A DNA stretch of 39,180 bases. Source: Betaproteobacteria bacterium. Lineage in GTDB: Bacteria; Pseudomonadota; Gammaproteobacteria; Burkholderiales; Burkholderiaceae. The stretch spans positions 1-39,180 of the forward strand of contig VGIH01000003.1 in the NCBI GenBank assembly GCA_016867965.1, in the 5' to 3' direction. Shown here one piece after another: positions 1,153 through 17,776 of this stretch. Both the position numbers and the translations under genes were made by a program. The notes under the pieces were generated by a model. It had not been told where the DNA came from and searched no databases. It saw nothing but the letters and a program-made list of their open reading frames with translations. Every line of letters starts with the position of its first letter. The first letter of the stretch is position 1.

Positions 1153-3777
1153 GTGACAACCAGTACAAAGTCGAGCAGCAAAAAAAATTTAGTCGCTGAG
1201 CACCCAAAAGCGCTCATCATTGCTGAAAAACCATCAGTAGCAAACGACATTGCTAAAGCCCTGGGCGGTTTTACCAAGCATGACGAGTATTTTGAGAATG
1301 ATGCCTTTTTGATCTCATCGGCAGTTGGCCATCTTCTTGAAATTGCCGCTCCTGAAGAATACGAAGTCAAACGGGGCAAGTGGTCCTTTGCTAATTTGCC
1401 TGTGATTCCCCCGCATTTTGATCTGCGACCTATTGCGAAAACGGAATCTCGCCTGAAGGTCTTACAAAAGCTCATTAAGCGCAAAGACGTCAATCGTATT
1501 ATTAATGCCTGCGATGCGGGTCGCGAAGGTGAGCTGATCTTTCGCTTGATTACTCAGCACGCCAAAGCCGCGCAAAAAATTGAGCGCCTATGGCTTCAAT
1601 CCATGACACCCGCTGCAATTCGAGAGGGCTTTAATAAACTGCGCTCGGACGATGAGTTAATTCCCCTTGCTGATGCAGCACGCTGCCGATCGGAGGCCGA
1701 TTGGTTGGTGGGGATTAATGGCACCCGAGCCATGACCGCATTTAATAGTAAAAGTGGTGGGTTTTTTCTTACAACGGTTGGGCGCGTTCAAACACCAACC
1801 CTATCGATTGTTGTCCAGCGCGAAGAGCAAATTCGGAAGTTTGTATCCAAAGACTACTGGGAGGTGCGCGCTGAGTTCATTGCCGCGGCTGGGGTTTATG
1901 AGGGCCGCTGGATCAATCCCGATTTCAAGAAAGATCCCGCCGATCCTGATGCGCGAGAAAATCGCCTTTGGAGCGAGGCTGCAGCTAAGAGCATTGTGGC
2001 TGCTTGTCGAGGAAAAAAGGGCGGCGTCTCTGAAGAATCAAAACCCGCAACTCAACTGGCGCCCCAACTTTTTGACCTCACAAGTTTGCAGCGCGAAGCA
2101 AATGCTCGATTTGGTTTCTCTGCCAAAAATACCTTGGGGCTTGCACAAGCCTTATATGAGCGCCATAAGGTCCTAACCTATCCAAGAACGGATGCGCGCG
2201 CACTGCCTGAAGACTATTTGAATACGGTTCAAAAAACCATCGCGCTGCTTGGTGAAAACGCTCAAGAGTGCCGACCGTTTGTAGCCGCAATCCTTAAAGG
2301 CGATGGTAAAAAATCATGGGTCAAACCTAATAAACGGATTTTTGACAACAGCAAAATATCGGATCACTTTGCCATCATCCCTACACTCGAAGCGCCTAAA
2401 AATTTAAGCGAGCCCGAACAAAAGCTCTATGACCTAGTGGTTCGGCGATTCTTGGCGGTGTTTTATCCTGCCGCCGAGTACCGAGTCACCACCCGCATTA
2501 CCGAAGTGTCTGGTCATCAATTTAAAACCGAGGGCCGCGTATTGGTTGAGCCAGGCTGGTTAGCTGTTTATGGTAAATCGTCTCAAACAGACGATGAACT
2601 GGTGCCTGTCCAGAAGAATGAGTCCGTTCAAAACGAAACTGTTGAGCTGGTCCCTTTAAAAACAAAGCCGCCGGCGCGCTATAGCGAAGCAACCTTATTG
2701 TCGGCGATGGAAAGTGCGGGGAAATGGGTCGATGATGACGAAATGCGTGAAGCAATGGCTGAAAAGGGTCTTGGAACCCCCGCGACGCGCGCTGCAATCA
2801 TCGAAGGTTTATTGGCAGAAAAGTACATCGTTCGTGAGGCCCGCGAGTTAATACCAACCGCAAAAGCATTTCAATTGATGACCCTTTTGCGCGGTCTTGA
2901 CGTTTCTGAGCTCACCCAGCCCGACCTTACTGGAACCTGGGAACACAAACTAGCGCTCATTGAAGAAGGTAAGCTTGATCGCAACACCTTCATGCAAGAA
3001 ATTGCACAGATGACACAAAAAATTGTGAAGCGTGCAAAAGAATTTAATAGCGATACTATTCCAGGCGACTATGCAACCTTAAAAACTCCTTGCCCGCATT
3101 GTGGCAAGGCCGTGAAAGAAAACTATCGACGCTTTGCTTGTGAATCCTGCGGTTTTACGATTAGCAAAACCCCGGGTGGTCGAGCATTTGAGTACGAAGA
3201 GGTTGAATCTTTACTTAAAGAAAAAACTGTCGGGCCCTTACAGGGCTTTCGCAGCAAAATGGGCAGGCCCTTTGCGGCAATTATTCGTCTTACTGAAATA
3301 CCATTAGACGATGCTGATTATCCCAATGCGGGCTTCAAACTGGAGTTTGACTTTGGCAACTCAGGTGGAGAGGATGAAGAGACGGTCGACTTCACTGGCA
3401 GAGAAGCGCTTGGGGGGTGTCCAAAATGCTCTGGTGCCGTTTACGAAGATGGGATGCGCTATATTTGCGAACACAATACGGGCCGTGCTAAAACCTGTGA
3501 TTTTAAAACTGGGAAAGTTGTTCTACAACAAGAGGTATCGGCGGAACAAATTAAAAAGCTATTGAAAGAAGGCAAAACTGATTTATTGACCAACTTTAAG
3601 TCCAATCGCACTGGTCGTGGTTTTAAAGCTTATCTTGCCTTAGATCCCAAAGGAAAAATTGGCTTTGAGTTTGAGGCTAAAGCGCCCGCCAAAAAACGCG
3701 CTGGCGACAAGAGTGCAAGTGATTCGGAGTCCAAACCAAAACGCGCAAGTCGCTCTAAAGCAAAGTCCGAGGAATGA
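1153..3777 (+). CDS. topB: DNA topoisomerase III, long form with C-terminal zinc-ribbon repeats and Lys-rich tail (GTG start)
   Basis: ALIIAEKPSVANDIAKAL, NACDAGREGELIFR, GRVQTPTLSIVV, LTYPRTDAR, two Cys-rich C-terminal repeats. Confidence 0.93.
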   Translation: MTTSTKSSSKKNLVAEHPKALIIAEKPSVANDIAKALGGFTKHDEYFENDAFLISSAVGHLLEIAAPEEYEVKRGKWSFANLPVIPPHFDLRPIAKTESRLKVLQKLIKRKDVNRIINACDAGREGELIFRLITQHAKAAQKIERLWLQSMTPAAIREGFNKLRSDDELIPLADAARCRSEADWLVGINGTRAMTAFNSKSGGFFLTTVGRVQTPTLSIVVQREEQIRKFVSKDYWEVRAEFIAAAGVYEGRWINPDFKKDPADPDARENRLWSEAAAKSIVAACRGKKGGVSEESKPATQLAPQLFDLTSLQREANARFGFSAKNTLGLAQALYERHKVLTYPRTDARALPEDYLNTVQKTIALLGENAQECRPFVAAILKGDGKKSWVKPNKRIFDNSKISDHFAIIPTLEAPKNLSEPEQKLYDLVVRRFLAVFYPAAEYRVTTRITEVSGHQFKTEGRVLVEPGWLAVYGKSSQTDDELVPVQKNESVQNETVELVPLKTKPPARYSEATLLSAMESAGKWVDDDEMREAMAEKGLGTPATRAAIIEGLLAEKYIVREARELIPTAKAFQLMTLLRGLDVSELTQPDLTGTWEHKLALIEEGKLDRNTFMQEIAQMTQKIVKRAKEFNSDTIPGDYATLKTPCPHCGKAVKENYRRFACESCGFTISKTPGGRAFEYEEVESLLKEKTVGPLQGFRSKMGRPFAAIIRLTEIPLDDADYPNAGFKLEFDFGNSGGEDEETVDFTGREALGGCPKCSGAVYEDGMRYICEHNTGRAKTCDFKTGKVVLQQEVSAEQIKKLLKEGKTDLLTNFKSNRTGRGFKAYLALDPKGKIGFEFEAKAPAKKRAGDKSASDSESKPKRASRSKAKSEE

Positions 3778-10699: not shown

Positions 10700-10821
10700 T
10701 TATATCCGGGTTTTGCCTAATTATTTTTACCTACTATTGCAAACAATTGATTTAAATAAAAAAGCGCTCTTTACGCACAACTTATCCACAGCTTATCCCC
10801 TGTATTTTTACTTGTGGATAA
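10700..10821. promoter_or_regulatory. Candidate oriC / DnaA-binding region upstream of dnaA
   Basis: TTATCCACA at 10783-10791 and inverted TGTGGATAA at 10813-10821; near-match TTACGCACA 10772-10780 and weaker TTATCCCTG 10794-10802; AT-rich tract 10710-10765; rpmH/dnaA divergence. Confidence 0.8.
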
Positions 10822-10858
10822 CTTTTATCCCTCGCTACAATCAATTCCTGAATTTCAT

Positions 10859-12331
10859 ATGAGCAAACTAGAAATCCCCCCACTCCTTACACACCCAAAT
10901 CCACTTGGGTTTTGGGATTTAGCTATGGAGATTTTAGCTAAAGAGTTGTCACCACAACAATTCAAAACCTGGATTCAACCATTAAAATTAAAGGGGTATG
11001 ACGAAAGTGAGCGTTTACTACTAATTGGTGCTCCCAATCCCTTCAAGCTTGACTGGATTAAGCGCACCTTTTCTGCGAAGCTTCACGAAATCGCCTCCTC
11101 TTATTTTGGCAGCACTATTAACATTCAATTTACACTCGGCGCCGATTCTACGAGAGACCCCTCCAAAATCGTTAATGCAGTTTTCCGTCAAGAAAAAATG
11201 GTGGATGCTTCGGTTGACACCGCCGCGCCGCCGGGCGCCGCCCTTTCTGCTGGCGACTTCGGAACCGAGGGGCTAGAGATCGGGATTGGATCGACTCCCC
11301 ACGATCGCGACCATTCAAAGCTTAATCCCGGGCTAACTTTTGAGAGTTTTGTTACAGGCAAAGCAAATCAGTTGGCTCGTGCAGCATCCATTCAGGTTGC
11401 CCACAACCCGGGGGCGTCGTATAACCCAATGTTTTTGTATGGCGGCGTGGGCCTTGGCAAAACCCACTTAATACATGCTATTGGGAATCACCTCCTTAAA
11501 GAAAAGCCTGATGCCAAAATTCGATATATCCACGCGGAACAGTATGTATCTGACGTCGTGAGGGCCTATCAGCAAAAGGCATTTGATCGATTTAAGCGGT
11601 ACTACCACTCCTTGGACCTATTGTTAATTGACGATATTCAATTTTTTGGTGGAAAATCCCGCACCCAAGAAGAGTTCTTTTATGCGTTTGAGGCTCTGAT
11701 TAGTAATGGGGCACAAGTAATTATTACCAGCGATACCTATCCAAAGGAAATGGAGGGTATTGATGAGCGCCTCATTTCACGGTTTGACTCTGGATTAACG
11801 GTTGCCATCGAACCGCCAGAGCTAGAAATGCGGGTTGCTATTTTGATGAAAAAGGCGGCCATTGAAGGCATCCCGATGAGCGAAGATGTCGCATTTTTTG
11901 TGGCCAAGCACCTGCGTTCAAACATTCGGGAGCTTGAGGGTGCGCTCAGAAAAATCTTGGCATACGTTCACTTTCATGGCAAGGAAGTCAATATTGAGGT
12001 GGCGCGCAGCGCACTTAAAGATCTTTTATCTATCCAAAATCGACAAATTTCGGTTGAGAGTATCCAAAAAACGGTTGCCAACTTCTATAACATCAAGGTT
12101 GCCGACATGTATTCAAAAAAGCGGCCCGCCAACATTGCTCGACCGCGTCAAATTGCGATGTTTATTGCCAAAGAACTAACCCAAAAGAGTCTGCCCGAGA
12201 TTGGCGAGTTATTTGGTGGTAGAGATCACACCACCGTTTTGCATGCGGTTCGTAAAATTGCTGAGGAGCGCCAGCGCGATTCTCATCTTAATCACGAACT
12301 GCACGTTCTCGAACAAAGCCTTAAAAATTAA
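10859..12331 (+). CDS. dnaA: Chromosomal replication initiator protein DnaA
   Basis: Walker [32 protein letters not shown]-terminal [18 protein letters not shown] at 10859 preferred over the track GTG at 10814, which lies in a DnaA box. Confidence 0.97.
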
Positions 12332-12579: not shown

Positions 12580-16231
<3,652 letters not shown>

Positions 16232-16235
16232 TCCC

Positions 16236-16721
16236 ATGAAAAAAAACAAAGCCCCGAAAATCGTGGCGAAGTCATTTATTGCCGTTAAAAATTCCAAAAT
16301 TCATGGCCGCGGCGTTTTTGTAAAAAAAGAAATCCCTAAAGGGTCAGCAATCATTGAATATATTGGTGAACGGATTAGTTGGAAGGAGGCTTTGCGTCGT
16401 CACCCACATGACCCAGAGCAGCCAAATCATACTTTTTATTTTTCGCTAGACGACGGACGTGTTATCGATGCAAATGTTGGTGGGAACGCCGCTCGCTGGA
16501 TTAACCACTCCTGTAAGCCAAATTGCAAAGCGGACGAAATTGCTGTTGATGGTGAGGGTCGCGTTTTTATATTTGCGAAGCGCAAACTTCTTCCAGGAGA
16601 AGAGCTTTTTTACGATTATTCACTCAATTTGGACGAAAAGCCGACAAAAAAGTTGCTAAAGGAATACGCTTGCTATTGTGGCAACAAAAAGTGCCGAGGC
16701 ACAATGCTTGATATTGATTGA
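16236..16721 (+). CDS. SET domain-containing protein (predicted protein-lysine methyltransferase with post-SET Cys motif)
   Basis: GRGVFVKKEIPKGSAIIEYIGE, NAARWINHSCKPNC, GEELFYDYSL and C-terminal CYCGNKKCRGTM; starts 4 nt after the gyrB stop. Confidence 0.92.
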   Translation: MKKNKAPKIVAKSFIAVKNSKIHGRGVFVKKEIPKGSAIIEYIGERISWKEALRRHPHDPEQPNHTFYFSLDDGRVIDANVGGNAARWINHSCKPNCKADEIAVDGEGRVFIFAKRKLLPGEELFYDYSLNLDEKPTKKLLKEYACYCGNKKCRGTMLDID

Positions 16722-16733
16722 TTCGTTGTCATT

Positions 16734-16961
16734 ATGGTGTTTGTTTCCATCCAAGATTTAGAGGCCGCCATAAATTATTGGCGCACACAATCACCCTCTA
16801 AAGGCGACGAGTTAGTTTTATCCAAAGAAGCAGGCGCCTTAGCAAAGCCGTACGCACTGATGATTATTCAGGGGGCACAGCGCATACCGCTTGATATGCT
16901 TGATGAAGTTTGTAAAGAGGCGCTAGCCAAGTTTGTGGCTTGGAAGTCACAAGCTAAGTAG
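16734..16961 (+). CDS. Small conserved protein, probably DUF3717 family
   Basis: 75 aa, IQDLEAAINYWRTQSPSKGDE...ALAKPYALMII, recalled as the Burkholderiales DUF3717 pattern; in the gyrB-SET gene string. Confidence 0.6.
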   Translation: MVFVSIQDLEAAINYWRTQSPSKGDELVLSKEAGALAKPYALMIIQGAQRIPLDMLDEVCKEALAKFVAWKSQAK

Positions 16962-16984
16962 CCAACCATTCATTGCGCTAAATT

Positions 16985-17776
16985 TTGGAAACCGTAGTCG
17001 ACTTTAGTTCGTATCTTTGGCTTTTGCTTTTGGTAGCCGCATTTGCCTCTGGCCTGGTTGATGCAATTGCTGGCGGCGGCGGATTGATTCAGGTGCCCGC
17101 TTTATTTGCTGCTTACCCAGATACCCATCCCGCAACGTTATTAAGTGCCAATAAAGTTTCTTCGATTGGTGGAACGATTAATGCAGCTAGGCGGTATTTG
17201 CGTCACGCAAAGTTACCGTGGAATATTTTGGGCCCGGCCATTGTTGCTGGATTCATCGGCGCGCTTTTGGGTGCCCTAGCCGTTAGTGTTTTTCCGCCAG
17301 AACCTCTGCGTAAAGCGTTGCCGTTCATGTTGGCAGCCTTGCTTGCTTACACTTGGTTTGCTCCGAATATGGGCGCTGAAAATCGCCCTACCCACAAAAT
17401 AGGTCGTCATGAAGCTATTAAGGCGGTAGCCATGGGTTTGGTTATTGGGTTTTATGATGGATTTTTTGGGCCCGCAACCGGAAGCTTTTTTCTATTTGCA
17501 TTTGTTCGAATCTTTCACTTTGATTTTTTGCATGCTTCAGCAGCTACCAAGCTGGTAAATGTTACAACTAATCTAGCCACAATCCTGATGCTTACAAGCC
17601 TTGGTTTTATCGATTGGCCTCTTGGCTTGACTCTTATGGTTGCTAATATTATTGGTAGCCAAGTGGGCAGCGTCTTGGCAATCACACACGGTAGCCAATT
17701 TATCCGAAAAATTTTCTTGATTGTGGTTTTGGCGCTGATTGTACGATCAGCATACTCCGCATTTTTTTCTAATTAA
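16985..17776 (+). CDS. TSUP/TauE-SafE family membrane transporter (TTG start as tracked)
   Basis: GLVDAIAGGGGLIQVPALFAAYP, NKVSSIGGTINAARRYLRH, YDGFFGPATGSFF, multi-TM hydrophobicity. Confidence 0.88.
   Translation: METVVDFSSYLWLLLLVAAFASGLVDAIAGGGGLIQVPALFAAYPDTHPATLLSANKVSSIGGTINAARRYLRHAKLPWNILGPAIVAGFIGALLGALAVSVFPPEPLRKALPFMLAALLAYTWFAPNMGAENRPTHKIGRHEAIKAVAMGLVIGFYDGFFGPATGSFFLFAFVRIFHFDFLHASAATKLVNVTTNLATILMLTSLGFIDWPLGLTLMVANIIGSQVGSVLAITHGSQFIRKIFLIVVLALIVRSAYSAFFSN

What the first reader, a model, noticed from the sequence alone, without database searches (positions are those of the whole stretch)
16236..16721. SET-domain lysine methyltransferase gene directly behind gyrB in the origin operon
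Seen directly: a 161-aa ORF 4 nt after the gyrB stop with SET hallmarks (GRGVF, NxxRWINHSCxPNC, GEELFYDY) and a post-SET CYCGNKKCRG motif. Established: SET proteins are typical eukaryotic histone methyltransferases; bacterial examples include chlamydial NUE and Legionella RomA/LegAS4. Inference: coupling to dnaA-dnaN-gyrB suggests a housekeeping substrate such as a nucleoid protein, ribosomal protein or replication protein, rather than a secreted effector. It has no obvious secretion signal.
Basis: partly seen in the sequence, partly recalled or inferred. Interest (0 to 1): 0.62.

Follow-up and report, generated by a model that had tools for sequence, protein, structure and literature searches.

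The report
Bacterial SET methyltransferase coupled to gyrB
A small enzyme of the type that methylates histones in our cells is made from the DNA-gyrase operon of a free-living freshwater bacterium, and it looks like an old, strongly conserved internal enzyme and not an injected weapon, although its target is unknown.

Summary
Window 16236-16721 (+) encodes a 161-aa SET protein, 4 nt behind gyrB in dnaA-dnaN-gyrB, followed by DUF3717. The organism is a Polynucleobacter. SET hallmarks and a post-SET Cys motif are present, and the closest solved relative is MLL1/KMT2A SET.

It is not a curiosity of one genome. All 37 genus genomes in a first sample carry exactly one copy. Intact copies start -8 to +6 nt from the gyrB stop. 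dN/dS is about 0.03, and divergence tracks gyrB (r 0.92). The family occurs in 277/300 Burkholderiaceae genomes and 69/300 across the order, usually near the origin. Outside Polynucleobacter its neighbours are topB, HU or metabolic genes; a separate gyrB-SET(-topB) arrangement exists in another family.

The genome has flagellar FlhA but no VirB4 and no separate injectisome SctV, and the gene is a pseudogene in one decaying 1.55-Mb genus genome. An effector role is therefore unlikely. It is not BurB-like (methionine S-methyltransferase).

Best reading: an intracellular protein-lysine methyltransferase with one conserved endogenous substrate. A nucleoid or DNA-topology protein is my leading guess, not shown. 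Origin proximity could by itself explain the gyrB adjacency. New member of a known kind, with an unusual genomic home.

The parts
16236..16721 (+). SET-domain protein, predicted SAM-dependent protein-lysine methyltransferase (161 aa)
16305..16622 (+). SET domain proper (Pfam PF00856, full length)
16671..16700 (+). post-SET CxCx4C-RG motif (C146, C148, C153), with C93 of NHSC a likely Zn cluster
   Evidence: Zn role inferred from KMT2A-type SET proteins
13733..16231 (+). gyrB; stop codon 4 nt before the SET start codon
16229..16238 (+). gyrB stop / SET start junction (TAA-TCCC-ATG), no obvious Shine-Dalgarno sequence; translational coupling inferred
16734..16961 (+). DUF3717 (PF12512), 75 aa; linked to SET also in many Burkholderiaceae where gyrB is not
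12580..13695 (+). dnaN
10814..12331 (+). dnaA
1153..3777 (+). topB (DNA topoisomerase III) with a Lys-rich C-terminal tail, in the same origin region; topB is the direct neighbour of SET in other lineages

Best explanation
The gene encodes an intracellular, single-domain SET protein-lysine methyltransferase that transfers methyl groups from SAM to a lysine of one conserved endogenous protein. SHOWN: the protein has the complete catalytic and SAM-binding motif set of KMT2-type SET domains and a post-SET cysteine cluster; it is under strong purifying selection; it is co-inherited with gyrB in Polynucleobacter, with the start codon right at the gyrB stop; relatives with the same SET-I (substrate) segment are spread over Burkholderiales, mostly near the origin. 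INFERRED: the catalytic activity, the translational coupling, and the substrate. My leading guess for the substrate is a nucleoid or DNA-topology protein (HU, a histone-H1-like Lys/Ala-rich protein, or a topoisomerase), as Go1-SET methylates MC1-alpha in Methanosarcina and cpnSET methylates Hc1 in Chlamydia. A ribosomal or other abundant protein remains possible. The confidence given is for 'intracellular lysine methyltransferase with an endogenous substrate, nucleoid/topology target most likely'; the first half alone I would put at about 0.8, the nucleoid/topology target alone at about 0.3.
For: Motifs and family. Exactly one copy in 37/37 genus genomes; 277/300 family genomes; 69/300 order genomes. 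Spacing of intact copies to the gyrB stop is -8 to +6 nt throughout Polynucleobacter. dN/dS 0.031; SET and gyrB nonsynonymous divergence correlate with r 0.92. The SET-I segment ISWKEALRRHPHDP..PNHTFYF is strongly conserved, which suggests one conserved substrate. topB is adjacent in Sphaerotilaceae, Thiomonas and family f49; gyrB and topB flank SET in f6; HU is next to SET in g27, g29 and g48 (PMC5390034). SETs at the f6 gyrB junction and the Polynucleobacter junction do not form one clade (AU p 0.022). Origin-proximal in 12/17 genera. Precedents: PMC3980110.
Against: No direct evidence of activity or substrate. Many other families have metabolic neighbours (acetolactate synthase, nicotinate phosphoribosyltransferase and others, read from sequence), so nucleoid/topology neighbours are a minority. 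General origin proximity raises the chance of lying next to gyrB or topB. The predicted structure is only moderate (pLDDT 73.7, SET-I region poorly resolved). Some Burkholderiaceae genera and reduced genomes lack the gene, so it is not essential.
Confidence: 0.55

Rival explanations
1. Position by location only: an origin-proximal lysine methyltransferase whose target has nothing to do with DNA (for example a ribosomal protein, elongation factor or other abundant protein) was moved behind gyrB by a local rearrangement and kept there for dosage and expression.
For: The family lies within 10% of the half-chromosome from dnaA in 12/17 genera. In most Burkholderiaceae it sits in a MarR-OYE-SET-TctE-DUF3717-PCD neighbourhood, and SET with DUF3717 appears to have moved together. 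Bacterial lysine methylation of ribosomal proteins is well known (established knowledge).
Against: Independent appearance next to gyrB (probably twice), topB and HU is more than a flat gene-content model would give (rough estimate, not corrected for origin proximity).
Confidence: 0.35
2. Host-directed nucleomodulin, as proposed for BtSET, LegAS4/RomA and NUE: secreted and methylating eukaryotic histones.
For: Sequence likeness to KMT2 SET domains; weak match to the AnkI/LegAS4 model over the SET domain only, 50.7 bits against a cut-off of 550. A Burkholderia thailandensis SET protein has been reported as a type III effector (PMC3980110).
Against: No VirB4 and only flagellar FlhA among FHIPEP proteins in a 95.8% complete genome. 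Found throughout free-living species. The copy in one decaying, reduced genus genome is broken by several frameshifts. Conserved with dN/dS 0.03.
Confidence: 0.04
3. Small-molecule methyltransferase of the BurB type (methionine to S-methylmethionine).
For: BurB of Burkholderia thailandensis is a proven SET-fold S-methyltransferase (PMC12542666, PMC7496086), so a SET domain does not guarantee a protein substrate.
Against: BurB is not among the 60 best PDB matches of P0001 or of the family profile, whereas a genuine BurB relative finds it first at 1.9e-35. BurB reads LLHSC where this family has an invariant NHSC Asn, and its region before HSC is quite different.
Confidence: 0.05
4. The substrate or partner is the small downstream protein DUF3717.
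For: SET and DUF3717 are adjacent or near in Polynucleobacter and many Burkholderiaceae. 19 of 22 order genomes with strong DUF3717 also have SET, Fisher p 8e-11, not corrected for phylogeny.
Against: DUF3717 is missing in many SET-bearing lineages, including g26 and f6, and in f49 it lies tens of kb away in several genomes.
Confidence: 0.1

Closest known systems
KMT2A/MLL1 SET domain (eukaryotic H3K4 methyltransferase)
   Same: Best solved relative by sequence (about 40% identity) and by fold search; the same HGxG, NHSC, ELxYDY and post-SET Cys motifs
   Different: Stand-alone 161-aa bacterial protein; different SET-I segment; Phe67 where MLL1 has a Tyr in its CYMF segment (read from the alignment)
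[quoted passage not shown] Ralstonia solanacearum RS_RS16825
   Same: Same kind of protein; the HU-divergent SETs found here (g27, g29, g48) are about 60% identical and fall in the same part of the tree
   Different: Divergent from HU in Ralstonia; coupled to gyrB here
BtSET (Burkholderia thailandensis; reported nucleolar effector)
   Same: Burkholderiaceae SET protein; reported H3K4 methylation (PMC3980110)
   Different: Whether BtSET is the ortholog was not tested here; an effector role does not fit the Polynucleobacter protein
BurB (Burkholderia thailandensis Met S-methyltransferase)
   Same: Small bacterial SET fold with a post-SET C-x-C-x4-C
   Different: Lacks the NHSC Asn; different substrate region; natural-product gene cluster
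Go1-SET (Methanosarcina mazei) and cpnSET (Chlamydia pneumoniae)
   Same: Prokaryotic SET enzymes reported to methylate nucleoid proteins (MC1-alpha, Hc1; PMC3980110)
   Different: Other lineages; substrate here not shown

Membership tests
SET-domain protein-lysine methyltransferase (Pfam PF00856, KMT2-like with post-SET) | Full-length SET domain above the curated cut-off | tested here: met
   86.9 bits against 22.4, profile 1-105
SET-domain protein-lysine methyltransferase (Pfam PF00856, KMT2-like with post-SET) | SAM/catalytic motifs HGxG, NHSC, YDY conserved in the family | tested here: met
   N90, H91, Y128 100%; C93, H23 and G24 99% of 186 sequences
SET-domain protein-lysine methyltransferase (Pfam PF00856, KMT2-like with post-SET) | Post-SET CxCx4C | tested here: met
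   C146, C148, C153 each 99%
SET-domain protein-lysine methyltransferase (Pfam PF00856, KMT2-like with post-SET) | SET fold in a structure model | tested here: met
   Foldseek best hit MLL1, probability 1.00, E 6e-12; the model is of moderate confidence and TM-scores are about 0.6
SET-domain protein-lysine methyltransferase (Pfam PF00856, KMT2-like with post-SET) | Lysine methylation activity | not testable with these tools
   needs an enzyme assay or proteomics
Secreted SET nucleomodulin (NUE, RomA/LegAS4 class) | Injection machinery in the genome | tested here: not met
   No VirB4; the one FHIPEP hit is FlhA; the genome is 95.8% complete
Secreted SET nucleomodulin (NUE, RomA/LegAS4 class) | AnkI/LegAS4 equivalog model | tested here: not met
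   50.7 bits against a cut-off of 550
Secreted SET nucleomodulin (NUE, RomA/LegAS4 class) | Shown translocation into host nuclei | not testable with these tools
   needs an experiment
BurB-type Met S-methyltransferase | Close sequence kinship to BurB (9L4T) | tested here: not met
   Not in the top 60 PDB matches; a true relative scores 1.9e-35
BurB-type Met S-methyltransferase | LLHSC and the BurB-type substrate region | tested here: not met
   Family has invariant NHSC and a different SET-I

The most novel reading that the evidence does not exclude
A bacterial chromatin-methylation system: the SET enzyme methylates HU, an H1-like protein or a topoisomerase, so that SAM status and growth tune nucleoid structure or DNA supercoiling, with enzyme output tied to gyrase production by translational coupling. 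It would be a native, non-pathogenic counterpart of eukaryotic histone methylation in one of the commonest groups of freshwater and soil bacteria.
Probability: 0.22. Interest if true: 0.8.

Novelty: new member of a known kind. Interest (0 to 1): 0.45.

Why it matters
Bacterial SET proteins are mostly discussed as weapons borrowed from eukaryotes. Here a SET protein is a conserved, slowly evolving, origin-proximal gene of mostly free-living bacteria, present once in every genus genome of the first sample. That makes the native role of bacterial SET enzymes directly testable in a small-genome, culturable organism: delete one gene and look for the lost methyl-lysine. A nucleoid target would show histone-style lysine methylation in ordinary bacteria.

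Tried and rejected
Effector reading: rejected on machinery, distribution and pseudogene data. BurB-type chemistry: rejected by PDB matching and motif comparison. Common ancestry of the two gyrB junctions: AU p 0.022 against; topB adjacency in f6 and f49 as one event could not be excluded (p 0.10). Monophyly of Polynucleobacter SETs plus g26 (which also has gyrB-SET) was not rejected (p 0.40). H1-like HC2 proteins as co-occurring substrate: enriched with SET (odds ratio 3.3, p 3e-5), but the model is low-complexity and phylogeny is not controlled, so I give it little weight. Phage carriage: no confirmed relative in IMG/VR with the conserved patterns. No convincing promoter or terminator signal at the gyrB-SET junction (no terminator on the coding strand, promoter-like hits few and weak). 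First gene calling on high-GC loci gave shadow ORFs and was redone. The EMBO Rep paper on BtSET was not held.

Full report
WHAT IS THERE. The ORF at 16236-16721 (+) is real: 161 aa, ATG start 4 nt after the gyrB stop. It matches Pfam SET over the whole profile (E 1.4e-24), and its closest solved relatives are KMT2A/MLL1 SET domains (E 2.7e-32, about 40% identity, including the post-SET part; family profile E 5.5e-36). Around it lie dnaA, dnaN, gyrB, DUF3717, a TauE-type transporter, mnmG, rsmG, parA and parB. topB is also in the window, at 1153-3777. Named relatives place the genome in Polynucleobacter.

CONSERVATION. In a first sample, all 37 genomes of the genus, own included, have exactly one SET gene. 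In the family sample 277 of 300 genomes have one or more. With the window protein as query at E 1e-8, 69 of 300 genomes of the order and 20 of 369 of the class match. Across 186 distinct sequences, N90, H91 and Y128 are invariant and the post-SET cysteines are 99% conserved. The SET-I stretch, which normally shapes substrate choice, is also strongly conserved, most of all among the closer relatives: ISWKEALRRHPHDP..PNHTFYF. In 42 genomes with full gyrB, dnaN and SET, median dN/dS is 0.031 for SET, 0.013 for gyrB and 0.022 for dnaN, and SET and gyrB nonsynonymous divergence correlate with r 0.92 (most pairs are near saturation at synonymous sites, so the ratios rest on the closer pairs). This is an ordinary vertically inherited gene under strong constraint.

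JUNCTION. In Polynucleobacter loci the intact SET start codon lies between -8 and +6 nt from the gyrB stop (several loci are the same genome fetched twice). No Shine-Dalgarno sequence is evident, so translation is probably coupled to gyrB; this is inference. Promoter and terminator scans add nothing.

NEIGHBOURHOODS ELSEWHERE. The gyrB junction is not general. In most Burkholderiaceae the order is MarR-OYE-SET, then TctE with a partner gene, DUF3717, PCD and phenylalanine hydroxylase. In Sphaerotilaceae, Thiomonas and family f49, SET is divergent from topB and often followed by birA. In g27, g29 and g48, SET is next to HU, as published for Ralstonia solanacearum, where HU methylation was already suggested (PMC5390034). 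In f6 the order is dnaA-dnaN-gyrB-SET with topB convergent. In other families the neighbours are mostly metabolic genes. The f6 and Polynucleobacter SETs do not group together (AU p 0.022), so the gyrB junction probably arose at least twice.

A CONFOUNDER. In 36 low-contig genomes from 17 genera, the SET gene lies within 10% of the half-chromosome from dnaA in 12 genera (using; contigs assumed circular, genera not independent). topB and gyrB are origin-proximal too in this genome. Part of the adjacency to topoisomerase genes may follow from this alone. I made only a rough estimate of chance by hand (about 0.1 expected nucleoid/topology neighbours among some 17 neighbourhoods, against four neighbourhoods observed); it ignores origin proximity and was made after seeing the neighbours, so I do not rest the case on it.

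NOT AN EFFECTOR. The genome has no VirB4, and its one FHIPEP protein is flagellar FlhA above the curated cut-off. In a 1.55-Mb genus genome with other broken genes (mnmG in two frames) the SET gene is broken by several frameshifts and a stop. Such decay would fit the obligate ciliate endosymbionts known in this genus (PMC5018217, abstract), but I did not identify that genome by name. A host-directed tool would more likely be kept there.

NOT BurB. BurB shows that a SET fold can methylate a small molecule (PMC12542666, PMC7496086). A real BurB relative found in passing retrieves BurB first at E 1.9e-35, while the window protein does not bring it into its best 60. BurB lacks the Asn of NHSC.

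STRUCTURE. AlphaFold2 on 36 sequences gave pLDDT 73.7 and pTM 0.64. Foldseek against the PDB puts MLL1 first, probability 1.00, TM about 0.6. This supports the fold. It is too coarse to judge the lysine channel.

CONCLUSION. Most likely an intracellular protein-lysine methyltransferase with a conserved endogenous substrate (about 0.8 for that half alone). A nucleoid or DNA-topology target is the best single guess (about 0.3), by neighbours and by the precedents Go1-SET/MC1-alpha and cpnSET/Hc1 (PMC3980110). DUF3717, the linked downstream gene, is a candidate partner (19 of 22 genomes with it have SET).

Noticed in passing
L147 around 6.7 kb, minus strand (genome G054, contig C5 near 67.7 kb; same order, family f19): A 574-aa fusion of an ornithine/DAP-type PLP decarboxylase with a C-terminal SET domain whose best PDB match is BurB (1.9e-35). 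BurB makes S-methylmethionine and BurI is the decarboxylase of the same pathway (PMC7496086), so this may be a single-chain Met to SMM to DMSP-amine enzyme.
   Followed up: partly
L141 4719-5215 (genome G017, 1.55 Mb): The only broken SET copy seen in the genus: several frameshifts and a stop; mnmG nearby is also split and fused to a TauE fragment.
   Followed up: partly
window 16961-16985; L070 and L141 downstream of DUF3717: The gap between DUF3717 and TauE/mnmG is a variable spot: empty here and in L061/L078, but about 5 kb of cargo in many relatives (in L141 genes that look like a branched-chain amino-acid ABC transporter).
   Followed up: partly
window 1153-3777: topB with a Lys-rich C-terminal tail; topB tails next to SET in Roseateles and Thiomonas are histone-H1-like (rich in Lys, Ala, Pro).
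   Followed up: partly
G000 contigs C75, C13, C5, C38 (L232-L235): Four HU/IHF-family proteins in the genome, two of them HU-like, as candidate substrates.
   Followed up: no
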